64,000 nucleotides of DNA, taken from positions 134,280,587 through 134,344,586 of the forward strand of contig OX578276.1 of the NCBI GenBank assembly GCA_951217055.1. Direction: 5' to 3'. Below, piece after piece: positions 5,119 to 52,678 of the stretch. Below the pieces are notes generated by a model. That model ran no database searches. It was not told where the DNA came from and saw nothing but the letters and a program-made list of their open reading frames with translations. Position 1 is the stretch's first letter, and every line of letters begins with the position of its first letter. A program made the position numbers and the translations under genes. Source of the stretch: Gerris lacustris (Eukaryota; Arthropoda; Insecta; Hemiptera; Gerridae).

Positions 5119-5156
<38 letters not shown>

Positions 5157-21700: not shown

Positions 21701-22023
21701 CATCCATTTCCGCCAACTAGAGTCTTTGAGGCACCGGAATCCAGCAGTCCAAGCATCGGAAACCCTAGAACCGATATTTCGAGGTAAGGTCTGGGATCAC
21801 CATGAGTAGAGGTTATCAATCCACTAACGTGTTCGTTTCTACAAAACTTACTTACAACCTCTAACCAATGTGACCTCTCCTTATCTTGAGACTTCCTAGC
21901 TACGAGAGGAAGACGAAGCCGTCTCTCTACTTTCGTCTTCCGTGGTCGTTTCCCTCTGCCGATGTTCGAGGACAACGTGGACAACTTGGTTTGGAAAAGT
22001 CCTTGTTTCCACATCTTCCACAA
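18781..22023 (-). CDS. Ty3/Gypsy Pol polyprotein (PR-RT-RNase H-integrase)
   Basis: Open for 1080 codons in the -1 frame relative to gag. The first triplet listed is TTG, so the protein is expected as a Gag-Pol frameshift product, not from its own start. Domains in order: aspartic protease with LLDSGASKT (catalytic D95); reverse transcriptase with YLDD at 397-400; RNase H with QTDAS (D546); integrase HHCC zinc finger starting near H734 and ending KKCHTC; integrase catalytic triad D804, D864, E899 with 34 residues between the last two (DD35E); then a basic C-terminal tail with a chromo-like/GPY-type stretch (GDVVWKK..., RWHVSELKP). Every catalytic residue I can check is present and there are no stops. 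It copies element RNA to DNA and inserts it. Confidence 0.95.
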   Translation of the reverse strand: MWKMWKQGLFQTKLSTLSSNIGRGKRPRKTKVERRLRLPLVARKSQDKERSHWLEVVSKFCRNEHVSGLITSTHGDPRPYLEISVLGFPMLGLLDSGASKTLVGGNGWEILQSLGFELEASTDFKCTVADGRQCKIIGSVDVPMTLDGKLKVIQTLVVPAIPSTLILGLDFWKTMEIIPDLINHKFQFSDKVYLSEVVVSQDHLTQEERELLKRVTDDFFAQMGAEIGCTDLVEHVIDTGDAAPIKQRYYPVSPKVQEKMNAELEQMLSQGIVEPSNSPWSSPIVMVLKPDGTYRFCVDFRKVNAVTKKDAYPLPYVSHILDRLKNARYISSLDIKSAYWQVPVAEASREKTAFTVPSRGLFQFTRMPFGLHNSPATWQRLIDRVLGADLEVYVFVYLDDIIICTSDFETHTRVLALVLSRLHKAGLTLNREKCKFCVSQLKYLGYVVDHCGLRVDPDKISAITQYPAPKTPKQLRRFLGMASWYRRFVPDFSTITSPLTSLLKKSCRWNWSEECVQAFRQLKEQLISAPVLTCPDFDKPFIVQTDASEVGLGAILSQEFPEGEKVIAFASRSLNKLERKYCATELEALAVLWAVEKFRSYLEGQKFLVVTDHMALKWLMDLKEPKGRLARWVLRLQQYDFQITHRPGKLHVAADALSRAPVDAVTVEETKVTDKWYLGMLEKVKLAPDKYPLWAISEEKLYANRSGKKNVGEEAMWKIVVPKERRKEVIAENHDSPMAGHLGSFKTKKRVMERYYWPGMAADISSHVKKCHTCLATKSETKKPAGLMGHQRDPGAPWRMISGDLMGPFPRSSNQNCYLLVVVDCFTKYALLHPLRKADAKAVSKYIEEKVFMMFGVPQYFITDNGPQWRSNEFQSKMADYKVRILFNPLYHAQSNPTERYNRTIKTMICAYVKENHKHWDKYLPQLGFALRTAVNESTGFSPSYLTFGSLLHPTGERVPDAADPLVKPPDPIAEQTARNLKKLQETIHRVRENLKKVHERNAHTYNLRRRPLEFQVGDVVWKKTHFLSDASKDFSAKLAPKFVRCRIVAKITPLVYEVEDEQGKRLGRWHVSELKPEPP

Positions 22024-23432: not shown

Positions 23433-24929
23433 CTTGAAGAAGGAAAAAAAATATAATTGTAAAATAAAAAGGCTAAATTATAACTGACAATATAACAAAT
23501 GATAAATTGAATTTCAGAAAATCAAAACTCGAATTAATAATGAATTTAGGATGGGTAAAGTAATTACCTATTAAAACAATCAAATTAAAAAAATCGAAAA
23601 AAATATTTAAAATAAAAATTACAATTGAGTTCTAATAAGTCGTTGACCTAAAATTAAACTTAAAATCTAAAATTTATTTACCCCAATGGCTAAATACCAC
23701 CAATAATATTAAAATTAGTAAAAGAAAAATTGAAATGACAAAGTATAAACAAAGGAAAATAATTGTATGTCTGAAAATGATGTAAACAAAGAATATATTC
23801 AAGTACTCTCGACTCACAAAGAGAAATACTTAAAAAAAAAATTAATAACAGATTTTAAAATTAAATTATAAGTTAATTTATGTTATATTTAGTTTTAAGT
23901 TTTATTTTTGTATAATTAAGTTGTAATTAAGTTATTATTAGGTTTCGTTATTTATAAGTATTGTAGAAGTTAATTTTATTAAAGTTAAGTTTGTCAAATA
24001 AAATATAATTAGTTATGTAATTAAATAATACATTCCAGTAAAAAAACAAAGAAACTATGTGTTATAAATTTGTATTTGGCGGTACCGCCCCCTTTTCCTA
24101 ACAATTCCTTAAAATTAATTCTAAGAACTAAAAATTCACACTCTCATTCATACCTTAAATTTAAAATTAAACCTAAACCCCGTTAAAACTAAAGATTAAC
24201 CTAATTCGTCTGACTCAGAGCAGAAAATAAAAAATGTCAGCAGAAATTAATATAAAATAATAAAATACAAAAACTTCTTCATTAAAGATGCTATCCAAAA
24301 TCCTCCAAACAGAGTAAAACAAATAAAACCCCAAAAATTATGGGCAAAAATATATAGAGACGTAGGTCTTCGTATAGATCTTTCAGCGCTCCAGTGCGAT
24401 AAAGGCCTGGCAACCCTGACTTCTTCTCTACCGGTGAAAAAGAAAAAGAATAAAACCACGCTATTACCTCTCCGATGTAAACAAACCTCAAGCCGTTACT
24501 GACTCCTCAAACTGTCTTCTTCTACAGATTTTTCTTCTATTAAATAAATAAATATGTGATATTACAGAACTACCTTATTTAAACCCTACTACAATACCTA
24601 CAGATAGAAGAGAAAATGTAGATGGCACCGCAACTGATCCAGAAACCTCGTAAAAGAATAACTGAAGATAGTGTAAATTAAATACCAGATAAGGATAAAT
24701 GAAAATATGTTAAAGTGATACAAAATTATATTTATATGGATACTAAATACCAATAAGGTAAGATATGAGATATATATAAATAAATAATGATATATTTTTG
24801 TTATTTTTACCTTATACGGGCCCAGTAATCACTGTGATAACTCATACATTTAACTCAAAATAAAAATAACAAAACAGACAAAATACCTTGCAGACAAAAT
24901 AAATGGTAATAAAAAGACCAACTTTTTCC
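23433..24929 (-). other. Untranslated leader of the Ty3/Gypsy element
   Basis: About 1.5 kb of very AT-rich DNA between the 5' LTR and gag. No convincing reading frame; short frames near 24,250-24,490 have no family resemblance. Long leaders of this kind usually hold packaging signals, which I cannot locate here. Confidence 0.7.
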
Positions 24930-24957
24930 AAGCCCCACGTTCCTGGGCGCTAATTTA
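24930..24957 (-). promoter_or_regulatory. Probable primer-binding site of the Ty3/Gypsy element
   Basis: Immediately inside the 5' LTR the minus strand reads TAAAT then TAGCGCCCAGGAACGTGGGG. This resembles the TGGCGCCCAACGTGGGG tRNA-Lys-type site seen intact at 59,348, with one substitution and a small insertion. Confidence 0.5.
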
Positions 24958-26341
24958 TGTAGCCCCAAATTTAATGGGCTCTACCACGTTAATTAAAATA
25001 ATAACCCAACTCAGTCGGTTGTAAAATGGGCAGGTTCTTACGGCTGGTCTGACTGCTGGACAACTACTTAGTTAAGTAAAATGAAAATTGGACGCCACCT
25101 CATTCAAATGAGAAAAAAAAATATGCTAACAAAGGACCAGGAACTAGGAAGTTTAAGCACTACTGGAGTAACTTAAAAGGGACAAGAAGGAAGGGAAAAA
25201 TGGACTAAAAGGGAAACTGGAGAATGAGGAATCCAGGGAAAATAAATTATAAGGTGAGATATTATAAAATAAAAAGACATAAATCGAACTAATGAATTAA
25301 ATAAAGAACACTCTTTATTGTGCCAGTTAACCGCACTCTTTGCTTTGCCCAGTAAAAGAATAATAAAATAATTAATAAAAGATCTGTAAAGAAAAAATAA
25401 AACGAATTGAGTAATCTCCTGTGGAAAAAAAAATTAACTGAATACACAAAATAAGAAATAACTCTCCAGGCAATCCTGGGAGGTCAAGTGGCAACTGAAA
25501 CCTGTATTATATACATATATATTAGTTCTTATAAATCAAACTTGGTGCACCTTAGGGCCCTATCACAAACACCTCCTACAAGCAGTCCTCTGCTCGGATA
25601 AAATATTAATAATAACCATTGATTGTTTTAGTCTATTTAACGGATAGGGCTATTGCAAGGTGATGAAATAATAATTGGTTTATACAATAGAAAATAAAAA
25701 TGTAATTATGGAGTGAAGGCAGGGTGGTGTGTGGGAGTGAAGGTGGGAGACCCTAGATGAAGTGGGGGAAGGGGTCGAAGCCTATGATGATTAAGTAAAA
25801 TTCGTCGACCTTACTTGAGAGAGAGTGATGGAGAGGGTATGGGTGATCACGATCACAATCGGATTTGAAACTTCGATGCTGGCTATTTGAGGGTGGCACA
25901 GGTCCTACTTCCAGAGAGTCGTCGGTACAGGTGTTTTGGCCCGGAAACAGTCACTAGCGCCTCCAACAGGGGAAACCTAGAAGAATCCACGATTATCGTG
26001 TTCTGCTCCCTAAATCCTGGTCCAAAGTTGCCAAAAACCTCTAACTCTAACTAAACTGAACTTATGAACTTCACATAGTCATCAGCTAACAATGTCCTCT
26101 CGCATCACGAGATCACAGAGACACCTAACCTCTCAGGATCACCCAGTGTACCCAAAAAAAAGAAAAAGAAGAACAAAACAAAAGAACTACCAAAGAAAGA
26201 ATACTAACTAATCAGCGACTGCCCTAAAATAATAAATAAAAAGACCTCCTAACCATTCACCAGAACATCGATCCGCCCCTAAATTTTTCTTAAACAGAAA
26301 TTTTACCGGGTGGATAATAAACTAAAAATAATATCGTTACA
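24958..26341 (-). repeat. 5' LTR of the Ty3/Gypsy element
   Basis: 1384-bp direct repeat of 17,110-18,493. On the minus strand it starts TGTAACG and ends GGGGCTACA. It contains no open frame of note. Confidence 0.95.
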
Positions 26342-26450
26342 ACCTTCCTCTTGCTTTGAAGGTCAAGTGTGCAAATTTTCATCGAGATCGGAATAAAACT
26401 GTAGATTTGTATAAAGGACATACTCACATACCCACAGACTTTCTTCTTTA

Positions 26451-27497
26451 TACAGGGTGGTCCAAAAGTCTCCCCCCCCCCTCTTAACTTTTGAACGGGT
26501 AGAGATAAATTAATGAAACTTGGGGGATCTCTACCATGCAAAGGGAAGTTTGTTTTCATGCACTCGCCCACTAGGGGCAACCACCCACTTTGCCCCCAGG
26601 CCACCCAACTTCAAAATTTCAAATTGGAATGTATATTTTTGATAGCATATTTGGATTCTACGGTGAAAAATAATAAACTTTTACTTGAAACTATTTTTTC
26701 TATCTCCAATATTTTCCCCCCTACAGGGGGTGCAAAGATAGCAAAATAACCCTTCCGAAATAGTAATAAAATAACACTTACATCGGTGTAAAATCTAAAC
26801 CGTTAGAAATAAAGTAATGAAACTTGGGGGATCTGTACCATGTAAAGGGAAGTGTGTATTCATCCACTCGTGTATTAGGGGCAACCACCATTTTGCCCCC
26901 AGGCACTGAAATTTACCATTTTTATACCTTTGTCCCCCTATAGGGGGCAAAATATTGGAGATATAAAAAAAAGTTTGAAGTAAAATATTTTTATTTTTCG
27001 CCGTAGAATCTAAATCTGCTATCAAAAATATACACTCTAGGTTAAAATTTTAAAGTATGGTAGCCTGGGGGCAAAATGGGTGGTTGCCCCTACTGTACGA
27101 TTGCATGAAAACAAACTCCCTTTACATGGTACAGATCCCCCAAGTTTCATTAATTTATCTCTAACCGTTTAGATTTTACAACGTATTATCAGAAGGGTTA
27201 TTTTGCTATCTTTGCCCCCCTATAAGGGGCAAAATATTGGAAATTGGAAAAAAAGTTTCAAGTAAAAGTTTATTATTTTTCACCGTAGAATCAAAATATG
27301 CTATCAAAAATATACATTCCAATTTGAAATTTTAAAGTTAGGTGGCCTGGGGGCAAAGTGGGTGGTTGCCCCTAGTGGGCGATTGCATGAAAACAAACTT
27401 CCCTTTGCATGGTAGAGATCCCCCAAGTTTCATTAATTTATCGCAACCCGTTCAAAAGTTAAGAGGGGGGGGGGGGAGACTTTTGGACCACCCTGTA
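26451..27497. mobile_element. Foldback TIR element (TA target), copy 1
   Basis: Ends TACAGGGTGGTCCAAAAGTC and its reverse complement GACTTTTGGACCACCCTGTA, flanked by TA on both sides (26,449-26,450 and 27,498-27,499). Nearly the whole element is two inverted arms of about 500 bp, each made of two related sub-units recognisable by CTTGGGGGATCT(C/G)TACCATG and CACCGTAGAATC. No transposase. TA duplication and CAGGG ends fit a non-autonomous Tc1/mariner-type element. A shorter relative lies at 52,025-52,650. Confidence 0.8.
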
Positions 27498-27499
27498 TA

Positions 27500-35567: not shown

Positions 35568-36908
35568 GGTCTTATATTACTTTGCTTTGTAAGTTTCATC
35601 GCACATTTCCGTTTCCCCAATTTTAAACCAATTTTTACTGGTCTTATATTACTTTGCTTTGTAAGTTTCATCGCACATTTCCGTTTCCCCAATTTTGAAC
35701 CACTTCCCGTGATTCAATCTTCCCTAAATTTTGCACAAAGATACAACTTAGGTGAAGAATACAGAAACCAAAAAAAAATAAAAAAAAAAAACAAAATGGC
35801 GTCAAATTTATTTGCTTTTTAAGTTTCATCGCACACCTATTACCCCAATTTTAAACCACTTACCGCGATTCAATCTTCCCCAAATTTTGCACATAAATAA
35901 AACTACGGTGAAGAATACAGAAACCAAAAAAAATAAAAACAAAAACAAAATGGCGTTAAATTTATTTGCTTTTTAAGTTTCATCACACACCTATTACCCC
36001 AATTTTAAACCACTTACCGCGATTCAATCTTCCCCAAATTTTGCACATAGATACAACTAAGGTGAAGAATACAGAAACCAAAAAAACAAAAAATAAAAAC
36101 AAAATGGCGTCAAATTTATTTGCTTCTTAAGTTTCATCGCACACCTATTACCCCAATTTTGAACCACTTACCGTCATTCAATCTTCCCCAAATTTTGCAC
36201 ATAGATACAACTAAGGTGAAAAATACAGAAACCAAAAAAACAAAAAATAAAAACAAAATGGCGTCAAATTTATTTGCTTTTTAAGTTTCATCGCACACCT
36301 ATTACCCCAATTTTGAACCACTTACCGTCATTCAATCTTCCCCAAATTTTGCACATAGATACAACTAAGGTGAAAAATACAGAAACCAAAAAAAAAATTA
36401 AAATAAGACCAGTTTTGAAAAATGGCATTTTTATATTAATTATTAAACCAAAAACCAAAAAACAAAAAACAAAATGGCGTCAATTTTATTTGCTTTTTAA
36501 GTTTCATCGCACACCTATTACCCCAATTTTAAACCACTTACCGCGATTCAATCTTCCCCAAATTTTGCACATAAATAAAACTACGGTGAAGAATACAGAA
36601 ACCAAAAAAAATAAAAACAAAAACAAAATGGCGTTAAATTTATTTGCTTTTTAAGTTTCATCACACACCTATTACCCCAATTTTAAACCACTTACCGCGA
36701 TTCAATCTTCCCCAAATTTTGCACATAGATACAACTAAGGTGAAGAATACAGAAACCAAAAAAAACAAAAAATAAAAACAAAATGGCGTCAAATTTATTT
36801 GCTTTTTAAGTTTCATCGCACACCTATTACCCCAATTTTGAACCACTTACCGTCATTCAATCTTCCCCAAATTTTGCACATAGATACAACTAAGGTGAAG
36901 AATACAGA

Positions 36909-36967
<59 letters not shown>
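35568..36967 (+). repeat. Tandem array of ~155-bp units in the retrotransposon leader
   Basis: The marker AAGTTTCATC(G/A)CACA recurs at about 35,593, 35,664, 35,823, 35,976, 36,130, 36,284, 36,501, 36,655 and 36,808. The usual spacing is 152-158 bp, with one short (72) and one long (215) interval. Each unit contains CAAATTTTGCACATA and an A-rich stretch before AAAATGGCGTC. The last unit ends in a long pure A run (36,910-36,967). Confidence 0.9.
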
Positions 36968-37160: not shown

Positions 37161-37282
37161 TTTAATTTGAATATAGGAAATAACAATTCTTACTAAACCT
37201 CTTTATTTACAGATTTTTTTGATGTGTTTAGTCAACTTAATAAGAGCGATTACTACTTAGAGTGAAATTTATATACTTGTTG
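37161..37282 (+). repeat. 122-bp direct repeat flanking the polymerase element (left)
   Basis: From TTTAATTTGAATATAGG to ATATACTTGTTG, identical base for base to 48,062-48,183 by eye. It abuts the left inverted repeat directly and reads like a target-site duplication of retrotransposon leader DNA. Confidence 0.9.
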
Positions 37283-38019
37283 AGTAGTATGAATTGGAGA
37301 GTTCTGGCCCCAGGATATCGATTCGATAATATATTGATTTTGTATTGCATGTTTAGTCTAACCACCTGTCGTCTACTTGTACGAGGGTGTGGAACCACCA
37401 CCCCCACCCTTCCGATATGTTTTCGATAGCCTCACCTGTACACCTGTACACGTGTAACGATGTATGTTGAAGAAGTCGAAGCTCGTTCTTGTGAAACGTT
37501 GTACGCGGGGCGTTTCGAGAGGAGCCTATAAAAAATCTCGTGTTCCGACTGGTAATCGAACCCCCAATGTCTCGAGCGTGAATACTTTGACTAAACGATC
37601 TCGGACACAGAGCCAATATGGAGGGGGAGGTCGAGAGTCGGTACATAAGGCTCGGTCATGAATAATATTTTTTTAAATTAATTCTAAAAATTTGTTTCGC
37701 CCCCCTCCCCTCGGGGGGCTCTTTTTGTTGTAATAAAGTGAGCCCCCTTTATAAAATAATCTTCTCCGGATTGTTTCGGCCCCCTTTGTCGGGGCTCTGT
37801 TTGTTGTAAAAATAATTTCGGGCCCCCCCCCTTTATAAAATAATTTTCTCTATTCAAAAATTTAAATCGGGGCTCGGGCTATGTTTCCCGCTTAAATAAA
37901 TAAACAGAGGGCGGTCTCATCTCATGGTCTAATGGGGTATATACGGGGGGTGTCCCCCTGCCGAAAAAAAAAAATATTTCGCAGCCCCCCTTTGCGAAAA
38001 AAAAATTATTCGGGGCTCG
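37283..38019 (+). repeat. Left terminal inverted repeat
   Basis: 737 bp matching the reverse complement of 47,310-48,061. The outer about 590 bp is essentially identical. Inward there is one replacement near 37,885 and small indels in C/A runs. The inner part is a chain of GGGGCTC / CCCCCTTT blocks. Confidence 0.93.
37540..37608 (-). other. tRNA-like segment in left TIR
   Basis: Mirror of 47,736-47,804. See that entry. Confidence 0.3.
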
Positions 38020-38374
38020 TTATCTGGGTCGATCCTCTCCCAGACTTGTATTTAATATTATTATTTCTTTTAACGTATTGTTTTAAAAGTTGATAACGAG
38101 AACAGGATGTTCTCTGCGGTCGCAGACTTCCCTCTTAAAAATGTAATCTATAATAATTATTGTATACGGGTAGATTAAAAAAGAAATACAATTTATTTAA
38201 ACATATTTTATTATAATAATCACAATTCAATTATTACATCCGATTGAAAAAAGGAATTTATGTTAACATAAGTTTTAAATCAAAATATCAACACTGACCG
38301 TACACTCAAGGCGAACCGCATTGTACTTTTATATCTATTACCGACCAATAGAAACGTTTCTAACATCCTCATTG

Positions 38375-38410
38375 ATTATATTGACACCGAGTTTAACGGA
38401 AATATCAGTC
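38375..38410 (+). promoter_or_regulatory. TATA-like box and initiator of the first gene
   Basis: ATTATATT at 38,375-38,382 lies about 30 bp before the initiator match TCAGTC (38,405-38,410). The ATG follows at 38,442. The same spacing appears at the other two genes of the element. Confidence 0.6.
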
Positions 38411-38441
38411 GCTTTCAGACCTTAGTGAGGTACGGATCGTT

Positions 38442-39042
38442 ATGGATTTGTTATATCAATCAGTCATTACACGTTTCAGTTCGAAGAAATGTATTATCGT
38501 CGGATTGAATGCTATCGACGGCGAACCTACATTGAGAATCCAACAAGGCAGAGTTAGTGTAGACGTCGGTGAATACATCTTGAAAGTAATAAAGATTAAT
38601 CAACAGACGATAAACAATTTTTTTATGGAAAAGAACAGTGAAGAGACGTTATACTTGGACAGGAAAACAACTAATGATGTGTACTTGGAGAAACAAAAAA
38701 AGAAGAAAACCGCTTTAATTTTCTCAGAATTGAATGCATGGCAGTTAGTAACAGATAACGTTTTACAAAGCATAAAACTACACAAGAAAGAGGTTATTCA
38801 ACTTCTTTCAAACCTTCACAAGATCGAAGAATACATCGAAACTTTAAAGAAAATATGGAGTAAGTTTTTTTTTTTTTTTTTTTAAATAATTTTATTTTAT
38901 TATTTATCTTTCTTCTTATTAGTTAATTTCAATTATTTATTTTATAGACACCAACGAAGGAGCTGAACTTCCTGAAGTTTACTTTGACGTAGATGAGCGC
39001 CTCAAGGAAATACGAATGAACCAAACATTTTCCGAGGAATAA
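38442..39042 (+). CDS. Spliced small protein of unknown function in the polymerase element
   Basis: Two exons: 38,442-38,859 and 38,948-39,042. The donor A|GTAAGT and acceptor TTTTATAG|A join in frame (Asn codon across the junction), giving 170 residues ending FSEE and a stop. AATAAA follows at once. Unspliced, the frame runs into poly-T (poly-Phe). The N-terminal half has a strand-rich stretch (PTLRIQQGRVSVDVGEYIL); the middle is lysine-rich; then an amphipathic helix around NAWQLVTDNVLQSI and an acidic C-terminus. I cannot name it. The strand pattern followed by a Trp-containing helix is loosely like PC4-type single-strand DNA-binding domains, which would suit a replicating element, but that is only a suggestion. 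Confidence 0.75.
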
Positions 39043-39494
39043 AAATAAAAACACAGATTTGTAATTTTTTGTACAATTTTTATTTTACAAAATAAACAAA
39101 TTTAAAAAAAAAATTAAATGTCTTTTTGTTATTTATCCACTTGCTCTTTTCATTCAGCCCTAAATAATTTACATAGAATTTATTATTTTTTTCTCTGTAG
39201 AATGTTTATTAACAAATAATACAAAGTTTTTTAGTTACGTTTATTTTGTACAAAAATGTCCACATTTTGACGCTTTAAGAACTAATAAAGTTAAAAGTAC
39301 AAACATCTGCTTTACAAAAGAAATCTCTAAGATAATAAAAATAGAATACAAAAATCTTAGTTGTTTTCACTACTCACAATTCTATGACCACAACTATAAC
39401 CTAGTATATGGTTTATTAATTTACAATTGCCATTGCAGCAAACATATATAAAGGATTTTAATAATATATGACAGTCTCAAAGAAGTAATCATAT
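39043..39494. other. Convergent 3' regions
   Basis: AT-rich DNA between the ends of two convergent genes, with polyadenylation-type AATAAA words on both strands (plus near 39,037; minus near 39,411-39,418). No gene. Confidence 0.6.
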
Positions 39495-40799
39495 TTATAT
39501 CTTATGAAGTAATTTATTGTATCTGCTTTGTCTTTTAGTTTCCCAACTCCGTCTAAGCTTATTTAGCATGGCTATATAATTGATTGAGCATGGTTCGTTT
39601 TCTCTTAACCCTGGCATTCTATATTTGGTAACCTCAGAGGAGTCGTAACTCCCAATTGAATTAGGTGATTCATCAACGCTACATGTTTTATAGTTGTTTA
39701 AGTCATATTTCTTTTTGTGTAAATCTCGTGACTGTACTTTATCCATATCGGAATCATCAGAAATATATCTATTTAAAAATGTTAACTGGGCGTGACTATA
39801 TTTCGGAGCCTTAGAGGATTCGTAGCTCATAGGAGATTTATCAACGCTACATGTTTTATAGTTGTTAAAATCATATTTAGAATTAACAATTTTTTGACAT
39901 TTATTTTGGTATATGTCTCCTGACTCTACCTCATCCATGTCGGGGAGTGATGAATTATCAGAAATAACACTATTTAGAAATGTTAACTGTGGGTGATTAT
40001 ATTTCGGAGCCTTAGAGGAATCATAGCTCCTATTTGAATTAATTTTTGTATCAAAACTGCATGTTTTATTTAAGTCATAATTAGAATTATCAATTTTTAG
40101 ATAATTCTTTGAGTGCGAATCTCCTAAATTTATCCCCTCAATTTCGGAGATTGATGAATCTTCAGAATCAACATCAATAGTTAGGTTTGTCTTTCCTGGA
40201 CTGGTTTCTGTGTCTTTACAAGAACCCAGATCTGGCTCCTTATCCAACTCTTCTTGCTTGCTTTCTTCAACATGTTTATTAAATTTACCACCTGGTTGCT
40301 TAATTACTTCCAGTGGTTGCTGGAGATTAAAACATTTCGATACAGTTTCAGTTGTAAAAGAATCCATTGGTTCTTTTACCGGTGGATTCTGGTTATCTAT
40401 AGCTTCTTTTTGCTTAGTTAAAGTTTTAAATTCAACACCGTCTATTGCGGAAGCTTGCTGTGTTAGAACCTCTGGACCTCGCAGAAAATCTATATCGGTG
40501 AAATACCACAAACTAGGAGTATGAAGATCTACAGTGTCTTTATACGTTTTTTCTTTGGTATTAATTTTCTTCAGTTGCCTACGGTACGCAGTACGCAGAA
40601 TATTAATTTTTCTACGTACCAGACCCCTATCAGCTTTGGGTTCAATTTCTTTCATCTTTTCCACCAGTTTTTCGTACGCCATGTCCTTCTTATTCCTATT
40701 TTTATATGCTTTACTTTTTATGTCCCACAGTGCTGGTAAGTTGTGGTATAAAATTATAAACTCACGCCAGAATTTCTTATTACTCTTTGGTAATGTCAT
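39495..40799 (-). CDS. MADF-domain DNA-binding protein
   Basis: 434 residues from the ATG at 40,799. An upstream in-frame TTG at 40,868 is not a credible start and lies almost at the predicted transcription start. Residues about 8-95 match the MADF (Myb/SANT-like) pattern: FWREFIILYHNLPALWDI, then KNRNKKDMAYEKLV and RRKINILRTAYRRQLKK, then LWYFTDIDFL. MADF domains bind DNA in insect regulators. The rest is acidic, probably disordered, with three copies of a unit around NNYKTCSVD...SYDSSKAPKY and QLTFLN. A basic Arg/Lys tail ends the protein (SWETKRQSRYNKLLHKI). The gene is divergent from the polymerase gene, and its promoter faces the iteron array, making it the natural candidate to bind those sites. 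Confidence 0.85.
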   Translation of the reverse strand: MTLPKSNKKFWREFIILYHNLPALWDIKSKAYKNRNKKDMAYEKLVEKMKEIEPKADRGLVRRKINILRTAYRRQLKKINTKEKTYKDTVDLHTPSLWYFTDIDFLRGPEVLTQQASAIDGVEFKTLTKQKEAIDNQNPPVKEPMDSFTTETVSKCFNLQQPLEVIKQPGGKFNKHVEESKQEELDKEPDLGSCKDTETSPGKTNLTIDVDSEDSSISEIEGINLGDSHSKNYLKIDNSNYDLNKTCSFDTKINSNRSYDSSKAPKYNHPQLTFLNSVISDNSSLPDMDEVESGDIYQNKCQKIVNSKYDFNNYKTCSVDKSPMSYESSKAPKYSHAQLTFLNRYISDDSDMDKVQSRDLHKKKYDLNNYKTCSVDESPNSIGSYDSSEVTKYRMPGLRENEPCSINYIAMLNKLRRSWETKRQSRYNKLLHKI

Positions 40800-40872
40800 A
40801 ATAATAACAATTAAAACACAGTGAGAGAATGAACAGGATAAGGTCTTTCCTCGATCAACTATCGCCAAACAC

Positions 40873-40906
40873 TGTCATAAACAGATTGGGAAAAATCCCT
40901 TTTATA
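40873..40906 (-). promoter_or_regulatory. TATA box and start region of the MADF gene
   Basis: TATAAAAG on the minus strand (40,899-40,906), with ACAGTG starting at about 40,873, roughly 31-33 bp downstream. The ATG is at 40,799. The first iteron begins only about 90 bp upstream of the TATA box. Confidence 0.7.
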
Positions 40907-40995
40907 CAATTAGTTTGCACAAAACATGACACATATAATACTATTTGCTCGGAAATGTTAACTTAATTGACTATATGTGTAATATAAGGCTTTGA

Positions 40996-41783
40996 TGTTT
41001 CCGCAAACATCAAACAGTCCCATTCATAGTTAGGATGATTTGATTGCGCTAATGTTTGCGCAAACATCAAACAGCCCCATTTAAAATTAATATGATTGTG
41101 CTAGTGTTTGCGCAAACATCAAACAGCCCCAATCATAGTTAGGATGATTGCCCATTTGTTTGCGCAAACATCAAACAGCCCCATTCATAGTTAGGATAAT
41201 TGCCCATTTGTTTGCGCAAACATCAAACAGCCCCATTCATAGTTAGGATGATTGCCCATTTGTTTGCGCAAACATCAAACAGCCCCATTTAAAATTAATA
41301 TGATTGTGCTAGTGTTTGCGCAAACATCAAACAGCCCCATTCATAGTTAGGATGATTGCCCATTTGTTTGCGCAAACATCAAACAGCCCCATTCATAGTT
41401 AGGATAATTACCCATTTGTTTGCGCAAACATCAAACAGCCCCAATCATAGTTAGGATGATTGCCCATTTGTTTGCGCAAACAATCTTTGTTTACGTGTTT
41501 GCGCAAACATCAAACAGCCCTATTCATAGTTAGGATGATTGCCCATTTGTTTGCGCAAACATCAAACAGCCCCATTCATAGTTAGGATAATTACCCATTT
41601 GTTTGCGCAAACATCAAACAGCTCCATTTAAAGTTAATATGTTTGCGCAAACAATCTTTGTTTACGTGTTTGCGCAAACATCAAACAGCCCTATTCATAG
41701 TTAGGATGATTGCCCATTTGTTTGCGCAAACATTAAACAGCCCCAATCATAGTTAGGATGATTATCCATTTGTTGGCGCAATC
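40996..41783. repeat. Iteron array: 15 perfect TGTTTGCGCAAACA palindromes
   Basis: Perfect 14-bp palindromes start at 41,053, 41,105, 41,157, 41,209, 41,261, 41,313, 41,365, 41,417, 41,469, 41,496, 41,548, 41,600, 41,640, 41,667 and 41,719. Degenerate copies lie at 40,996 and about 41,770. Eleven of the fourteen intervals are exactly 52 bp; the others are 27, 40 and 27. Most units continue TCAAACAGCCCCATTCATAG. The array fills the space between two divergent promoters. 52 bp is five turns of B-DNA, so bound proteins would sit on one face. Confidence 0.95.
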
Positions 41784-41956
41784 ATCAAACAGCTCCAGAT
41801 GAGTATTTAAAAACCGTTACAGGTATAGTAAATAATCCTTTGCTTCTATTCAACATAACCTGTGTTGAAGATACCATTGTAAAAAAATTACACGATTTAA
41901 CGTCAAATCTTATATTGCTTAAAAGTAATTGAGAATAATAATAATAGTTATTATAA

Positions 41957-42256
41957 AAAGAAATAAAAATTTAATTCGTTTATTTTAATTTAGTTATCAG
42001 TTATCAGTATAGAGTTGGCTTTACTTCCTTTCTCATCAAGAAACCACATCCGAGTCAATACAATACAATTAACCGCAATCTATCACTGAATTGATAAAAA
42101 CTCGAAGAAATATAAATTTAATTTTATTCGTTTATTTTAATTTAGCTATTAGGTATCAGAGAGTTGACCTTATTTCCTTTCACAACAAGAAACCACATCC
42201 GAGTCAATACAATACAATTAACCGCAAACTAACACTGAATTGATAAAAACTCAACC
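41957..42256. repeat. Tandem duplication of ~150 bp upstream of the polymerase promoter
   Basis: 41,957-42,105 and 42,108-42,256 share AGAAACCACATCCGAGTCAA, TACAATACAATTAACCGCAA and TGAATTGATAAAAACTC. The copies have diverged by several substitutions and small indels. Confidence 0.85.
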
Positions 42257-42309
42257 GTGTGAAAAACCGTTAGCGATATTATTTGCCCCCTTCTTCCGGA
42301 GTAATTGAG

Positions 42310-42345
42310 TATAAATAGACGAATTATCTAGATATTGATTCATTC
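42310..42345 (+). promoter_or_regulatory. TATA box and initiator of the polymerase gene
   Basis: TATAAATA at 42,310-42,317 and initiator TCATTC at 42,340-42,345 place the start at about 42,342. A 5' untranslated exon runs to 42,408 (AAG|GTAATT donor), followed by an intron with a long T tract ending TTATAG at 42,542, directly before the ATG. Confidence 0.75.
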
Positions 42346-42542
42346 GCATTTTGGATCTCTCAGCGAGCACACAAGTACGATTTCTTCTTCCTCCAACAGC
42401 CAATTAAGGTAATTACTTTTTTTTTTTTTTTTTTTTTTTCTTTTTTTTTTTTTTGTTTAAATTCTGTTCAATTAATTTATTTTCATTTAATTTTTTATTT
42501 ATCATTTTTATAAATAGTTAATTTCAATGATTTAATTTATAG

Positions 42543-45500
42543 ATGACTTCACTAGCTGACAAATTAAACGGTGCTACAAGACGTTACCTAAAAGTAACAG
42601 AGTTGGAAGTAAATAAGAGGTATAAAATCATTGGATTTAGCACAGTGAATGGAAAGTATGGCAAAACTCTAGTGGCGGAAATCAATAATGAGGGAGGAGA
42701 GAGATTACATATATTTTTACCGACGAGATTCCAATCGATGATGTCGGACGAGGAGATTAATTCATACAACGGTTAGTTAATAAAAATTTATTATTAATAT
42801 TATTTTCTTTGTTAAATTATTATTTAATTTTTTATTAATTTTACTCATTTATGTTCGTATAGGAAATCTTGATATGGTCTTCGAGGGGATAGAGAAGACT
42901 ACACATCTAGTTAAATTTATTGATGTAAACAAAGAAAAGAAGGCGGAGGAGGAACACCAAACCAAGGAGAGAAAACTACAGAAATGTGAGTTGTGTAACA
43001 TTTCATTTTTTTCATCACATAGGTGTTTGCATTGTACCAAATGTGACATTAGCTTCTTATCACCTTTGCATTTTAAACTTCATACATGTACTAAAAAATA
43101 TCAATGCGATCACTGTAAGAAAATGTTTTTTCTCTATTCCGAAATGAAACATCATGTTAATAGATGTTTTACTTCAAACGGAAAGAGAAAAAACATTTTC
43201 AAACAGCGATCCATGAGTAAAAAACAGAGACTCTACTGCGTTCCGGACCAAGCTGGTACCGTAACTTCGATGAATGGAAACGCTGTAGACATCTTTGTAA
43301 AAAATATGAATAATAACTCTGACCCGGCCTTGTTTTTTGAAGAAACTCGACAGACTATAAAGACGATACTTAGGGACTACATTGAAAAATGGCATAATCT
43401 GAAAACTAATACAATGTTTGAGTGTGAATACATTAAGGATGAGGGGACTGTGACCGAAACAATGACTGATGCTAACTTTAAAACAAAAACGGAAAGACTA
43501 GACTTATCTACAGACTTTGACAATTACATTGACACTGTTATAGAAAAATTAATTAGGGAAATTGAGACGTTTGTTTCAATGGGTTCTGGCTGGAAACTTT
43601 TCCGTGTCAACGGACTTTTAATCAGAATGTCTAAATACAAACCTTTGAAGGGGGGATGTAGATTTATTTTGCCTAAAAAAATTGCAAATACAAAATCCGT
43701 AATAAATATAAATAATTCTGACGAGTACTGTTTTAAGTACTCGATACTTTCGTCCATGTTAGACCATCATTACGAAAAACTTGGAAATTATAAACTTATT
43801 AATCACAATTATTCTTTTTCGGGAATTTCATTTCCCACGTCTTTAAAAGATGTGGAGAAATTTGAAAAAATTAATAATGTAAGTATAAACATTTATGCCT
43901 TGGACAAGGATAATATCGTTTATCCGCGTCAAATTTCTAAATTTATTAGATCGAGTGTTCAGCATTTCGATCTATTATACTTACAAAATGAGTCACATGG
44001 ACATTTTTGTTTGATAAAAAATTTTTCGCGTCTCGTCTCCTCACAATTGAATAAACGTAATGGTAAACAATTAATTTGCAAAATGTGTTTCAAAACATAT
44101 CGAAATGATTACATATCCGTTGAGGGTAAGTTACCCTCTCAACGTTTAAGTGAACATGAAACTCTATGTTCACAACACCGCGCTAGTAGGGTTTTAATGC
44201 CAAAGCCCGAAAAGGCGTTTATAAAATTTAAAAATATCAATAATAAAATGCGCGTACCGGTTGTAGTGTACGCGGATTTCGAATCCTTACTGAGACCTGT
44301 AGAAACAAATAGCGAAACAAATTGTAATAAATCTTGGACTAAAAAGACCCACGTTCACGAAATTTGTAGTGTCGGCGCTTATGTGAAATCGAGCGTAGAT
44401 ACATTTACAAAACCCGTTTTTACTTATACAGGTCCTGACGCGGTTGATAAATTTTTCACATACCTACGCGATCTGTGTAGGGAAGTGGAATCACTTTACA
44501 GTAAAGTCGTCCCGATGGAACCTCTAACCGCAGAAGAGAGTAAACGTTTTGACGACGCTACACATTGCGGTATTTGTAGTCAGGTGATCACAATGACCGA
44601 TACGAAGTGTCGTGACCATGATCACCTTTCCGGAAAATTCAGATTCGCTACTCACGTTGCGTGTAATCTGAATTTTAATCTTCCCGAATTCATTCCCGTT
44701 ATGATTCACAACCTTTCGGGCTATGATGGACATCCGCTTGTTTTGGGTATATCGAGCCTCCCTGGTGAGGTGACTGTAATACCCAACACAACGGAAAAAT
44801 ACATCACCTTCACAAAGGCTTTTGACGACATTAAAATAAAAATAAAGTTCGTCGACACGTATAGGTTTCTAAATACCAGCCTGGAGAAACAAATCTCCAA
44901 CATGCCTCAATTTCCCGAAATGAGTCGAATTTTTACAGACGATACGAAACGACAATTACTGTTAAGGAAGGGGGTCTATCCGTATTCATACATGACCGAT
45001 TGGGACAAAATGACAGAGTCTCGTTTACCTGACAAACAGTACTTTTACAACGACTTGACTGACAAACATATTAGTGACGAGGATTATGCCCACGCACAGA
45101 CAGTATGGACTTCATTTAATTTACAATCAATGACCGATTACTGCGAACTGTACATGTTAACTGACGTTATTTTGCTATGTGATGTCTTTGAACAGTTTCG
45201 AAACGTTTGCTATTCCGTTTACGGCCTCGATCCCGCTTGGTACTTTACAGCCCCAAGTCTATCTTTCGACGCGATGTTGTTATACACGGGTGTAACACTC
45301 GACCTATTAACCGATTACGATATGTATTTGATGTTGGAAAGCGGTATTCGAGGAGGTATTACGACGTGCGTGACACGGGAAGCAACCGCAAACAACCCGT
45401 ATATGAAAAATTTCGACCCCTCGAAACCCGTAAGTTATATTTCGTACATAGACGCGAATAACCTTTACGGTTATGCTCAATCCGATGTCCTGCCGCATTC

Positions 45501-46677
45501 TAATTTCCAATGGTCCGCTACGGACTTGGACGTGATGAATGTTCCCGACGATTCTCCCGTCGGTTACATTTTAGACGTCGATGTAAGTGTTCCCACCGAC
45601 AAGTCTTTTCACGACCGATTCGATCAGTTACCTCTTTTGGCGGAAAATAAATTACCCCCCGGTGGAAAACACGTCAAACTTATCGCGACCCTAAATGATA
45701 AAACCCGCTATGTGATCCATTACCGGAGTCTAAAACAGGCTTTGGTAATGGGTTATAAACTGAAAAAAATCCACCGCGTAATTAGTTTCGATCAATCGCC
45801 CTGGTTAAAGGGGTACATTGATCTAAACACTCGCATGCGTCAGTCTGCGAAAAACAATTTCGAGAAAGATTTTTATAAATTAATGGTAAATTCTACTTAC
45901 GGCAGATTCCTTATGAATAAGCGTAAACGAGTAAACATGCAGTTGTGTACAGACGAGACCAGTTTCATGAAACTGGTCTCAAAGGCCAACTTTAAAGACC
46001 GGATAATATTTAACGAGAATGTCACGGCTGTGACATTGTACAAAGAGTCAATCCTTTTCGATTCCCCCATCCAAATAGGCTTTACCGTTTTGGAACTGTC
46101 AAAGACATTAATGTACGATTTTAATTACAACATTATGCTCGACAATTACGGTGACAGACTGACTTTACTCTATATGGACACGGACAGTTTTATATATAAA
46201 ATCGAAACAGAGGACATTTATGACGATTATCTTAGTTTGAGGAATCATTTCGATTTCTCAAACTTTCCGACAGAACACAAATGCTATTCGATTGAAAACA
46301 AGGCCGTGGTTGGAAAATTTAAAGATGAAACTCCGGGTAAAATTATAACCGATTTTGTAGCGTTAAGACCAAAAATGTATTCTTATAGAACAGACGATTA
46401 TAAGGAAGTAAAGAAATGCAAAGGTGTTAAAAAGTCCTCAGTAGACAAACAACTGACTTTTAACGAGTACAGACGGATACTACATACTAATAAACAGATG
46501 TACTGCACTTACAAGAATATAATATCAAAACGACATAGACTATTCACTTGCGCTTACAACAAATTAGCACTGACAAACAATGACGACAAACGAAAAATTT
46601 TACAAGACGGAATACATACAGTAGCATTTGGTAACTGTAACATTATCAGTGAGGATGAAAATGAAACTGATGCATAA
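42543..46677 (+). CDS. Protein-primed-type family B DNA polymerase with N-terminal extension and zinc fingers
   Basis: Two coding exons: 42,543-42,771 and 42,863-46,677. Donor G|GTTAGT and acceptor CGTATAG|G join in frame, making ATG 42,874 an internal Met. The total is about 1,347 residues. Exon 1 encodes a compact domain (KVTELEVNKRYKIIGF, KYGKTLVAEI, IFLPTRF), probably a small beta barrel. Positions below are counted from Met 42,874. Cys/His fingers start at C38/C41. A region common to this polymerase group includes HFDLLYLQ and HGHFCLIKNFSRLVSSQ. Exonuclease motifs: YADFES (D468, E470), HNLSGYDGH (D618), YCELYMLTDVILL. Polymerase motif A: IDANNLYG (D860). Motif B: KLMVNSTYG (K1002, Y1009). 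Motif C: YMDTDSF (D1102, D1104). All catalytic residues are intact. It should replicate the element from its ends. Confidence 0.92.
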
Positions 46678-47309
46678 CTCTCATTCATTTTAAGTTATTT
46701 TTTATTAATCAATTTTTTTTGTTTGTTTTCTATTTCAGTTTAATAAAAGAAGTATTCGTTATCCTACTCGATGTAATTATTTTTCATTGTTTAAAAAATA
46801 AAACAGATTATAATGTACATATGTTTTTTATTGTAAATAAAGTGAATGTAATATATTTTGTTGACGTTTTTATCGCTTATCAAATTTCCTTTTCCTCTAA
46901 CATTATCAAAATAGTTTGTAAGTACAAATGAAAAGAATGTTTTACTACAATGAACTACAACTCGTAGGAATGTTTACTACATCGTAAAAGATAAACTCTT
47001 TGATAATTTTAATATGTGGAATTCATAATAATGTGGGCGGTCAGAGGAGATTACGAGTTCGAATACCAGAGAAGTAAGTATGATTATTTTTATATAAACT
47101 CATAGGGAAACTTTGAAATAAGAGGCCGTTAACAGAAACGAGCCCCGAATAAATTTTTTCACAAAGGGGGGCTAATATTTTTTCGATAGGGGGACACCAC
47201 CCGTTTACACGGGAAAGGAACCGTCAACAGAAACGAGCTCCGAAGTAAGTATAATTATTTTTATATAAACTCATAGGGAAACTTTGAAATAAGAGGCCGT
47301 TAACAGAGA
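46678..47309 (+). other. 3' region of the polymerase gene and subterminal repeats
   Basis: AATAAA at about 46,797 is the likely polyadenylation signal. From 47,060 inward-facing copies of GGCCGT(T/C)AACAG and ACGAGC(C/T)CCGAA form a partial tandem duplication of about 180 bp before the TIR proper. Confidence 0.6.
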
Positions 47310-48061
47310 CGAGCCCCGAATAAATTTTTTCGCAAAGGGGGGCATATTTTTTCCGACAGGGGGGGGGGGGCACCCTCCGTATATACCCCATTAGAGCATG
47401 AGATGAGACCGCCCTCTGTTTATTTATTTAAGCGGGAAACTTTGAAAAAGGGGGCCGTCAACAGAAACGAGCCCCGATTTAAATTTTTGAATAGAGAAAA
47501 TTATTTTATAAAGGGGGGGGGCCCGAAATTATTTTTACAACAAACAGAGCCCCGACAAAGGGGGCCGAAACAATCCGGAGAAGATTATTTTATAAAGGGG
47601 GCTCACTTTATTACAACAAAAAGAGCCCCCCGAGGGGAGGGGGGCGAAACAAATTTTTAGAATTAATTTAAAAAAATATTATTCATGACCGAGCCTTATG
47701 TACCGACTCTCGACCTCCCCCTCCATATTGGCTCTGTGTCCGAGATCGTTTAGTCAAAGTATTCACGCTCGAGACATTGGGGGTTCGATTACCAGTCGGA
47801 ACACGAGATTTTTTATAGGCTCCTCTCGAAACGCCCCGCGTACAACGTTTCACAAGAACGAGCTTCGACTTCTTCAACATACATCGTTACACGTGTACAG
47901 GTGTACAGGTGAGGCTATCGAAAACATATCGGAAGGGTGGGGGTGGTGGTTCCACACCCTCGTACAAGTAGACGACAGGTGGTTAGACTAAACATGCAAT
48001 ACAAAATCAATATATTATCGAATCGATATCCTGGGGCCAGAACTCTCCAATTCATACTACT
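47310..48061 (-). repeat. Right terminal inverted repeat
   Basis: 752 bp, mirror of the left repeat and ending ...CATACTACT. Just inside it (47,060-47,310) the motif GAAACTTTGAAATAAGAGGCCGT plus ACGAGCCCCGAATAAA is present as a partial tandem duplication not seen on the left. Confidence 0.93.
47736..47804 (+). other. tRNA-like segment in right TIR
   Basis: GTGTCCG (47,736-47,742) pairs with CGGAACAC (47,797-47,804) with one bulge. Between them are TTTAGT in D-arm position, TTCAC in anticodon-loop position as in tRNA-Glu, and GGGGGTTCGATTACC like a B-box/T-arm. D and anticodon stems are weak and the segment is a few bases short, so it would be a degenerate tRNA-Glu-like relic or a coincidence. 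Confidence 0.3.
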
Positions 48062-48183
48062 TTTAATTTGAATATAGGAAATAACAATTCTTACTAAACC
48101 TCTTTATTTACAGATTTTTTTGATGTGTTTAGTCAACTTAATAAGAGCGATTACTACTTAGAGTGAAATTTATATACTTGTTG
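48062..48183 (+). repeat. 122-bp direct repeat flanking the polymerase element (right)
   Basis: Second copy of 37,161-37,282, abutting the right inverted repeat. After it the retrotransposon leader continues (TCTTTTATTATT) towards gag. Confidence 0.9.
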
Positions 48184-50429: not shown

Positions 50430-51215
50430 AATCTTATGTTGATGTTTATGGGGCTGATGTTTATGATGTTGGTGATTATGATGATGATGATTATGATGTG
50501 GATGTTTATAATGTTGATGATTATGATGTGGATTTTTATGATGTTTATGTTTATGATGTAGATGTTTATGATGTTGATGATTATGATGATGATGATTATG
50601 ATGTGGATTTTTATGATGTTGATGTTTATGATGTGGAGTTTTATAATGTTGATGCTTATAATGCAGATGCTTATGATGTTGATGTTTGTGAGGTTGATGT
50701 TTATGATGTTGGTGATTACGATGATGATGATTATGATGTGGATTTTTTTTGTTGATGTTTATGTTTATGATGTAGATGATTATGATGTTGATGCTTATGA
50801 TGTTGATGTTTGTGAGGTTGATGTTTATGATGTTGGTGATTACGATGATGATGATTATGATGTGGATTTTTATGATATTGATGCTTATGATGCAAATGCT
50901 TATGATGTTGATGTTTATGATGTGGATGCTTATGATGTTCATGATTATGATGTTGATGTTTATGATGTGGATTTTTATGATATTGATGCTTATGATGCAA
51001 ATGCTTATGATGTTGATGTTTATAATGTGGATGCTTATGATGTTCATGATTATGATGTTGATGTTTATGATGTGGATTTTTATGATATTGATGCTTATGA
51101 TGCAAATGCTTATGCTGTTGATGTTTATGACGTTGATTTTTATGATGCTGTTGTTTATGGTGTTGATGTTTATGGTGATGTTTATGATGTTAATGTTTAT
51201 GATTATATCATGGCT
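50430..51215 (+). repeat. Degenerate GATGTTTAT-type minisatellite
   Basis: Nearly 800 bp built from 9- and 12-bp words such as GATGTTTAT, GATGATTAT, GATGTGGAT and GATGCTTAT, with larger repeated blocks (for example about 50,870-50,935, 50,965-51,030 and 51,065-51,110). All three frames stay open for long stretches only because the repeat lacks stops. I do not regard the Asp/Val/Tyr or His-rich frames as genes. Confidence 0.9.

Positions 51216-51938: not shown

Positions 51939-52024
<86 letters not shown>
51939..52024. repeat. TA microsatellite
   Basis: Nearly pure TA dinucleotides between the 3' LTR and the second foldback element. Confidence 0.95.
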
Positions 52025-52026
<2 letters not shown>

Positions 52027-52650
52027 CAGGGTGGTCCAAAAGTCTCCCCCCTCTTAACTTTTGAACGGTTTGAGATAAATTAATTAAACTTGGGGGAGTA
52101 GATAGAAAAAAAAGTTTGAAATAAAATATTTTTATTTTTTGCCGTAGAATCTAAATCTGCTATTAAAAATATACACTCTAAGGTAAAATTTTGAAGTTAG
52201 GTGGCCTGGGGGCAAAATGGGTGGTTGCCCTACTGCGCGATCGCATGAAAACAAACTTCCCTTTACATGGTACGGATCCCCCAAGTTTATTTAATTTATC
52301 TCTAATCGTTTAGATTTTACAACGTATTATCGGAAGGGTTATTTTGCTATCATTGCCCCCCTGTAGGGGGCAAAATATTGGAGATAGTTACAAAAAATAG
52401 TTACAAGTAAAAGTTTATTATTTTTCACCGTAGAATCCAAATATGCTATCAAAAATATACATTCCAATTTGAAATTTTGAAGTTGGGTGGCCTGGGGGCA
52501 AAGTGGGTGGTTTCCCCTAGTGGGCGATTGCATGAAAACAAACTTAACTTTGCATGGTAGAGATCCCACAAGTTTAATTAATTTATCTCAAACCGTTCAA
52601 AAGTTAAGAGGGGGGGGGGGGGGGGGGGAGACTTTTGGACCACCCTTTAC
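52025..52650. mobile_element. Foldback TIR element, copy 2 (internally deleted)
   Basis: Same ends as 26,451-27,497 (TACAGGGTGGTCCAAAAGTC and its mirror, the right end decayed to CCCTTTAC) and the same internal words, but about 420 bp shorter. A poly-G run of about 20 sits at 52,611-52,629 and TA repeats flank both sides. Confidence 0.8.
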
Positions 52651-52678
52651 ATATATATATTATATATATATATATATA

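What the first reader, a model, noticed from the sequence alone, without database searches (positions are those of the whole stretch)
37283..48061. A compact polymerase-iteron-MADF element that lacks integrase and capsid genes
The sequence shows a 10.8-kb unit with inverted repeats of about 740 bp, a complete family B DNA polymerase of the protein-primed group, a DNA-binding MADF protein, one small spliced protein and an iteron array. Polintons and related elements are known to pair this polymerase with an integrase, protease, packaging ATPase and capsid genes. None is recognisable here and there is no room for them. Inference: a self-contained replicon or minimal transposon that keeps only replication functions, either depending on another element for insertion or using its own unknown route.
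Basis: partly seen in the sequence, partly recalled or inferred. Interest (0 to 1): 0.93.

Follow-up and report, generated by a model that had tools for sequence, protein, structure and literature searches.

The report
Polymerase-bearing satellite of a Polinton
This 10.8-kb stretch of a (probably insect) genome is a hybrid mobile element that lacks the integrase and capsid genes carried by its full-length relatives in the same genome, and it likely spreads by borrowing them, much as satellite viruses borrow from helper viruses.

Summary
In detail: 37283-48061 has perfect 594-bp inverted ends (similarity to ~740 bp), a spliced small gene, a MADF gene, an iteron array and a 1,267-aa PolB; no integrase or capsid was recognised. 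Yet this is no plain deletion. About 2.6 kb of MADF-iteron DNA, unmatched in those helpers, replaces the missing block and marks a family: 17 full-length MADF genes, 16 without stops, 14 near a RING-WWE gene, 2 near a listed PolB, none with its own cognate integrase or capsid. The window copy is a chimera: its array runs into the 3' end of a helper metalloprotease gene, bringing PolB. Ends are shared; 15 of 17 paired copies fit 6-bp target duplications, the window copy has 122 bp. I read it as a helper-dependent Polinton satellite; trans-mobilisation is inferred. The MADF protein's C-terminal domain also occurs fused to a psq domain beside another palindromic array, suggesting a swappable iteron-binding module.

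The parts
37161..37282 (.). left copy of a 122-bp target duplication
   Evidence: identical to 48062-48183; single copy in paralogous sites L049-L051
37283..37876 (+). left terminal inverted repeat, perfect part (similarity continues to 38020); starts AGTAGT
38442..38859 (+). small gene, exon 1 (139 full codons); intron 38860-38947 (GT..AG) predicted
   Evidence: same exon 1/intron/exon 2 layout in helper copies; dN 0.21, dS 0.89
38948..39042 (+). small gene, exon 2 (predicted)
   Evidence: homologous peptide in helper, ending at a stop
39495..40799 (-). MADF protein gene, 434 aa: MADF DNA-binding domain + C-terminal domain shared with other Polinton-linked proteins
   Evidence: PF10545 1.9e-15; 17 full-length genomic copies; C-terminal similarity to L055 and L064 proteins
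40989..41797 (.). iteron array, ~52-bp period, 15 exact TGTTTGCGCAAACA palindromes
41797..41798 (.). recombination junction: satellite array fused to helper DNA
   Evidence: in 6 of 6 helper copies fetched, the match to the right half starts at element position 4516; the same junction is read in L040
41798..41929 (+). leftover 3' end of the helper metalloprotease (matrixin) ORF; right limit approximate
   Evidence: helper match starts at L032:2551, inside ORF L032:913-2682, Peptidase_M10 1e-24
41968..42252 (+). 149-bp direct repeats, shared with helpers
42874..46677 (+). family B DNA polymerase, 1,267 aa; Cys/His-rich N-terminal region seen by eye only
   Evidence: PF03175 4.6e-22; 96-99% aa to helper copies; dS 0.023-0.025, dN 0.007-0.008 to three helpers
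47468..48061 (-). right terminal inverted repeat, perfect part
48062..48183 (.). right copy of the 122-bp target duplication

Best explanation
The 10.8-kb unit is a chimeric member of a MADF-carrying family of Polinton-derived elements in which no integrase or capsid gene was found, and it is likely inserted, and perhaps packaged, by proteins that full-length Polintons of the same genome supply in trans. Shown: its left half (TIR, small gene, MADF gene, iteron array) belongs to a multi-copy family found mostly without a nearby PolB; its right half (PolB and TIR) is 93-98% identical in DNA to helper Polintons and is joined to the array at one point inside the helper's metalloprotease ORF; helpers, satellites and this copy have the same (AGT)2 ends. 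Inferred: (1) helper integrase recognises the shared ends and makes the 6-bp duplications; (2) helper PolB copies the PolB-less members from their TIRs, which would explain why arms of one element are more alike than arms of different elements, while this copy would use its own PolB; (3) the MADF protein binds the palindromic array between its own gene and the divergent downstream gene and acts there as a regulator or initiator; (4) this copy's 122-bp duplication arose when its two ends joined target strands 122 bp apart, by an aberrant integrase reaction or by end-joining of linear element DNA.
For: Helpers: integrase PF00665 1e-12, capsid PF21738 3e-103, ATPase PF04665 1e-5 in one copy; seven cognate integrases (97-100%), each with one of seven cognate full-length capsid genes within 8 kb. 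Family: of 17 full-length MADF genes 17 have the small gene nearby, 14 RING-WWE, 2 a listed PolB, 0 a cognate integrase or capsid. Chimerism: PolB dS to three helpers 0.023-0.025 but small-gene dS to helpers 0.89; junction read in two copies. Shared mobility: AGTAGT ends in 17 of 17 pairs; 15 of 17 fit an exact 6-bp TSD. Replication signature: arms 98.6-100% identical within 11 of 13 elements, among them the window copy and four satellites without listed PolB, against at most 98.0% between elements; satellite arms' best matches include helper arms. Selection: small gene dN/dS 0.24; MADF region dN 0.125, dS 0.497 against an older lineage. Array and protein: TGTTTG-n-CAAACA 15, 21 and 29 times in three MADF-linked arrays, 0 in 132 kb of seven other Polinton copies; a psq-domain relative sits beside 31 copies of CCAATTATTGG.
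Against: No expression, protein, episome or particle was observed. The window copy is the one insertion of 17 with a 122-bp duplication, so helper integrase is not shown to have inserted it. The PolB of the other copy with the same junction (L040) is further from the window's (dS 0.034) than three helper PolBs are (0.023-0.025), so a single junction event needs later exchange with helpers. Outside its MADF region the MADF protein is less constrained (dN 0.373, dS 0.665). 99% identity of MADF copies reflects recent spread, not selection. Only 2 of 17 full-length MADF loci have PolB, so the chimera may be a minor by-product. Arm homogenisation could also come from gene conversion in the chromosome, and 2 of 13 elements have unlike arms (92.5, 92.8%). 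Helpers carry a different inverted-repeat array, so the MADF protein may not act on helpers. Genome searches scored only part of the candidates (PolB 37 of 513, integrase 124 of 2,757, capsid 103 of 277).
Confidence: 0.74

Rival explanations
1. A self-sufficient minimal replicon that replicates with its own PolB and inserts by its own unknown, integrase-free route.
For: The window copy carries PolB, TIRs and a DNA-binding protein, lacks an integrase, and has a 122-bp rather than a 6-bp target duplication.
Against: The other chimera with the same junction (C1:20804089) has flanks compatible with 6 bp, though in an AT run, and six paired MADF copies without listed PolB have 5-6-bp duplications like the helpers'. 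PolB is close to helper PolB.
Confidence: 0.1
2. A dead internal-deletion derivative of a full-length Polinton, carried along passively.
For: Right half 93-98% identical to full-length copies, ends shared, capsid and integrase missing.
Against: ~2.6 kb of MADF and array DNA finds no match in the helper pieces; 16 of 17 full-length MADF ORFs have no stop; the small gene shows dN/dS 0.24 against helpers at dS 0.89.
Confidence: 0.1
3. The chimera arose on the chromosome by recombination between a satellite and a helper insertion and is not itself a mobile unit.
For: Helpers and a chimera lie close together at C1:20.40-20.84 Mb.
Against: In the window copy the arms are 100% identical and the target duplication is intact (0 of 122 differences, against 6-7 mismatches plus gaps to each of three paralogs); a copy with the same junction lies at another site with other flanks.
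Confidence: 0.06

Closest known systems
Polinton/Maverick elements (adintovirus-like), e.g. intact vertebrate Mavericks, PMC8097293
   Same: family B DNA polymerase, long TIRs with (AGT)2 ends, 6-bp TSDs in the family (ends, TSDs and ~17 kb size read in passages)
   Different: window copy lacks integrase, capsid, ATPase and protease; 10.8 kb against ~17 kb; 122-bp duplication; MADF-iteron cassette
Phage satellites (P4, PICI) and their helpers (recalled; abstracts seen in the listing)
   Same: smaller element sharing mobility signals with a helper, lacking structural genes, carrying its own regulator and accessory genes (8.7-10.8 kb against 16.6-17.5 kb here; one helper copy is 24.5 kb)
   Different: this one is integrated in a eukaryotic genome; packaging in helper capsids is not shown
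Virophages and transpovirons (recalled; reviews seen in the listing)
   Same: hyperparasite logic; transpovirons are linear DNA with TIRs (recalled)
   Different: those depend on giant viruses; here the putative helper is a Polinton of the same genome
Non-autonomous DNA transposons with captured genes (Pack-type, recalled)
   Same: ends recognised in trans by an autonomous relative
   Different: keeps several conserved genes, at least one under purifying selection, and a DNA-binding protein with an adjacent array
Plasmid Rep/iteron or partition systems (recalled)
   Same: DNA-binding protein gene next to an array of palindromic sites
   Different: binding not tested; the DNA-binding domain differs between lineages (MADF or psq) on a shared C-terminal domain

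Membership tests
[quoted passage not shown]
   PF03175 4.6e-22; protein priming itself was not testable
Polinton/Maverick | rve (retroviral-type) integrase | tested here: not met
   none among the element's ORFs of 80 aa or more; cognate integrases listed only in helpers
Polinton/Maverick | DJR capsid, packaging ATPase, cysteine protease | tested here: not met
   not found in the element; in a helper copy capsid and ATPase are clear, the protease only a weak hit, E 0.2
Polinton/Maverick | TIRs with (AGT)2 / (AG)3-type ends | tested here: met
   AGTAGT...ACTACT at both ends
Polinton/Maverick | 6-bp target site duplication | tested here: not met
   122 bp in the window copy; over all 17 pairs 15 fit exact 6 bp, one has 5
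Satellite of a helper element | lacks structural and mobility genes that a co-resident relative encodes | tested here: met
   0 of 17 full-length MADF loci with a cognate integrase or capsid within 12 kb; seven helpers with both
Satellite of a helper element | shares cis-acting ends with the helper | tested here: met
   outer 440 nt of arms intermixed between helper and satellite copies; that they act in cis is inferred
Satellite of a helper element | own genes not derived from the current helper | tested here: met
   MADF and array unmatched in pieces of six helper copies; no listed RING-WWE within 15 kb of the seven cognate integrases
Satellite of a helper element | replication, integration or packaging demonstrably supplied by the helper | not testable with these tools
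   needs experiment; inferred from TSDs and arm similarity

The most novel reading that the evidence does not exclude
An animal genome houses a helper-satellite system built on Polintons: a long-lived satellite lineage without integrase, capsid or (mostly) polymerase rides full-length Polintons, controls itself with a DNA-binding protein whose DNA-reading domain (MADF or psq) is swapped together with its cognate palindromic iteron array, and can turn into a polymerase-bearing form by capturing a helper's PolB.
Probability: 0.55. Interest if true: 0.88.

Novelty: new variant of a known kind. Interest (0 to 1): 0.77.

Why it matters
Satellites that parasitise mobile viruses are well known for phages and giant viruses. 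If Polintons of animals have them too, one genome offers helper and satellite copies whose divergence can be measured, a visible conversion event (satellite gaining PolB) and a testable regulator-iteron pair. It also bears on whether animal Polintons still replicate as linear DNA and package: a capsid-less lineage that stays young and keeps its ends in step with helpers would need helpers that are, or recently were, active.

Tried and rejected
Viral contigs: no relative of PolB, with a single-protein query that reaches close relatives only. Homologs of the small gene in the large protein database: none at E 1e-3. AlphaFold of small-gene exon 1: mean pLDDT 37.6, not used. MADF protein homologs in that database: 7, matching over 23-39% of the query, so no other species was shown to have the cassette. 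PHROGs gave nothing for MADF or the small gene. First idea that a long duplication is the rule for integrase-less copies: rejected, the other 16 pairs fit 5-6 bp. Idea that the MADF gene is simply a captured host gene: weakened, since its C-terminal domain is shared with 19 listed ORFs, 16 of them within 4 kb of an rve integrase. Ectopic recombination between two targets as source of the 122-bp repeat: disfavoured. Whether the older MADF lineage (C2:29.45 Mb) is itself a satellite stays open: it has a truncated rve fragment, and its further flanks could not be fetched.

Not in print, as far as searched: 0 papers for non-autonomous Polinton/Maverick or Polinton satellite; 2 papers holding both polinton and iteron, neither opened, judged off topic from the listing; 0 for MADF with polinton. 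Only CC-licensed PMC papers are held; PMC1450207 and PMC5898198 were not; Repbase entries were not searchable.
Full report
What is there. The element 37283-48061 has perfect 594-nt inverted arms; the similarity extends to about 740 nt at 94% overall. Between them lie a small gene with a predicted intron, a MADF gene on the minus strand (PF10545, E 1.9e-15), an array of the palindrome TGTTTGCGCAAACA, and a 1,267-aa family B polymerase (PF03175, E 4.6e-22). Of the 16 stop-to-stop ORFs of 80 aa or more inside the element, 15 were scanned and the last repeats one of them in the other arm; no integrase, capsid, ATPase or protease family appeared.

The element is flanked by a perfect 122-bp direct repeat. 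Three paralogous sites elsewhere in the genome hold this segment once, continuous with both flanks, so the repeat was most simply made at insertion. The target is a repeat family with a Ty3-capsid-like ORF at 48446 (E 2.1e-4, below the curated cut-off).

Other copies. The window lies in contig C1 of a 937-Mb, 69-contig assembly. A search with the left arm gave 64 matches, 40 of 222 candidates scored. They form 17 pairs whose ends I examined (13, four). Thirteen pairs have one exact 6-bp duplication (one of these, C3, also fits 4 bp), two lie in TA runs where 6 bp fits among other lengths, one (C8) has 5 bp, and the window copy has 122 bp. All 17 start AGTAGT. Three of the pairs (C10:37.9, C10:40.8, C1:20.63 Mb) hold an integrase only 47% identical to the helpers', so they are another lineage with similar ends. 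PMC8097293 (passages read) uses (AG)3 or (AGT)2 ends and perfect 6-bp duplications to find intact vertebrate Mavericks.

Helpers. One 17.3-kb copy, read in two separate pieces, encodes an rve integrase (1e-12), a double-jelly-roll capsid protein (3e-103), a Pox_A32-type ATPase (1e-5), a BIR-RING protein, a matrixin-type metalloprotease and PolB; an adenoviral-type protease is only hinted at (E 0.2). In the genome there are seven cognate integrases at 97-100% identity (124 of 2,757 candidates scored) and seven cognate full-length capsid genes at 99-100%, plus one degraded match at 90% (103 of 277 scored); each integrase has one of the capsid genes within 8 kb. Pieces of six of the seven were fetched. 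Some helper copies carry interrupted genes.

Not a simple deletion. Element positions 4516-10779 match the six helper copies in blocks of 93-98% DNA identity, while positions ~1938-4515 (MADF and array) find no match in helper pieces. Positions 1-1010 match at ~86-92% and 1123-1937 (small gene) at ~75%. At 41797/41798 the array runs straight into helper sequence, at a point inside the 3' end of the helper metalloprotease ORF; the same junction is present in the copy at C1:20804089. Divergence tells a similar story: PolB differs from three helpers by dS 0.023-0.025 and dN 0.007-0.008, but the small gene by dS 0.89 and dN 0.21. The two halves have different ages relative to helpers. Against a simple history, the PolB of the second junction copy is dS 0.034 from the window's, further than the helpers'; later exchange with helpers would be needed.

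The MADF family. A protein search found 17 MADF genes over the full 434 aa, 16 without stops, plus partial copies (97 of 531 scored). Matching listed coordinates: 17 of 17 have the small gene within 3 kb, 14 of 17 a RING-WWE gene within 12 kb (WWE 6.6e-10; positions), 2 of 17 a PolB within 9 kb (the window copy and C1:20806417; PolB search scored 37 of 513), 0 of 17 a cognate integrase or capsid within 12 kb. One of 17 (C9:58.3 Mb) has neither PolB nor RING-WWE by this test. Of the eight partial MADF loci, six have the small gene, four RING-WWE and three PolB; one has a cognate integrase within 12 kb, which lies in the adjacent helper. The C6 member was read in pieces: apart from TIRs it has BIR-RING, small gene, MADF, array, a second BIR protein and RING-WWE, and no PolB, integrase or capsid was found. 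Six paired members measure 8.7-10.7 kb; C9 and C8 have too little room beyond MADF and TIR for a 3.8-kb PolB gene.

Why I think helpers move it. First, ends and target duplications are shared. Second, over the outer 440 nt (gaps ignored) the two arms of one element agree at 98.6-100% in 11 of 13 pairs, including the window copy and four members without listed PolB (C6 98.6, C2 99.5, C3 99.5, C10 100), whereas the best match to any other element is at most 98.0%; two pairs are hybrids at 92.5 and 92.8. Protein-primed copying of linear DNA with TIRs would homogenise arms in this way (recalled from adenovirus-like replication; applied here by inference); gene conversion in the chromosome is an alternative. 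Third, satellite arms find their nearest relatives among helper arms as well as satellite arms, for example the C10:8.20-Mb arm with a C9 helper arm at 97.9%, while the internal small genes are far apart. So ends are exchanged or kept in step while interiors are not. None of this shows supply of proteins in trans directly.

The MADF-array pair. The array lies between the MADF gene and a divergent gene: PolB in the window copy, a BIR gene in the C6 member. An older lineage at C2:29.45 Mb, with a PolB about 42% identical, has a MADF gene beside an array with 29 copies of TGTTTGACAAACA; the half-sites are those of the window array (15 copies) and the C6 array (21, of which 20 with spacer CG), with spacer A instead of CG. 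Between window and older MADF proteins dN and dS are 0.125 and 0.497 in the first 110 alignment columns, 0.373 and 0.665 in the rest. Repeat units within one array are not independent, and the arrays may share ancestry. A third locus (L064, next to an rve integrase listed) has a related C-terminal domain fused to an HTH_psq domain (1.3e-9) and a neighbouring array with 31 copies of CCAATTATTGG; its last 82 residues are 96% identical to those of the older MADF protein, although no similarity was found between the N-terminal parts. Nineteen ORFs with that C-terminal part are listed, 16 of them within 4 kb of an integrase; only one was read. Helpers have yet another inverted-repeat array, CCGTTCAAAC-n4-GTTTGAACGG, near the metalloprotease ORF; exact matches were found in three of six helper copies and half-sites in all six. 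I infer that the protein binds the adjacent array and that binding domain and sites are exchanged together. What binding does (transcription control, replication initiation, incompatibility) is open; divergent placement makes autoregulation the first guess.

The 122-bp duplication. Both ends of the element are canonical and complete, so the termini were joined precisely; only the distance between the two strand joins is odd. Uncoupled integrase strand transfers, or end-joining of linear element DNA at a break with far-apart nicks, would both give it. It is one event of 17.

Limits. Genome searches score only part of the candidates, so counts are lower bounds, and 'none' means none among those listed; of the satellites only C6 was read right through. 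No transcript or particle evidence exists here.

Literature. Passages were read in PMC6431247, PMC4028283, PMC8504770, PMC8097293 and PMC12220804; others were seen only as listings. No paper on Polinton satellites, Polinton iterons tied to a DNA-binding protein, or MADF in Polintons turned up. PMC8504770 reports Hessian fly Maverick consensuses with only the polymerase or the integrase domain and reads them as fragmented copies.

Noticed in passing
G000: C1:122341775-/122351187+, C11:27016052-/27024788+, C2:18695636-/18704409+, C1:154533617-/154542017+: Pairs of PolB genes of the ~42% lineage with equal scores in opposite orientation about 9 kb apart, as if PolB lay inside very long inverted repeats.
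   Followed up: no
G000: The genome is very rich in Polintons: 2,757 first-look integrase candidates (124 scored) and 277 capsid candidates (103 scored), most of the listed ones without stops.
   Followed up: no
window 17110-26342: Ty3/gypsy-like element with long terminal repeats 99.93% identical over 1,385 bp, hence probably young.
   Followed up: no
window 247-940, 15815-16652, 26449-27499, 52011-52659: Long self-complementary stretches (the first three 83-93%); 26449-27499 and 52011-52659 are related to each other, up to 91%.
   Followed up: no
window 35653-36967: 154-bp tandem array ending in a run of 56 A just left of the element.
   Followed up: no
window 50436-51203: 15-bp unit repeated about 51 times, with open frames on both strands.
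   Followed up: no
C1:34162912, C3:70734046, C6:22809411: Homologs of the satellite RING-WWE gene (87%) lie near integrases of a different Polinton lineage, so satellites seem to assemble genes from several lineages.
   Followed up: partly
L046/L047 (C1:20633625-20646804): A 13.2-kb Polinton of another lineage (integrase 47% to the helpers') with a phospholipase A2-like protein (PF08398 8.3e-15), whose PolB fragment and TIRs resemble the helper family.
   Followed up: partly
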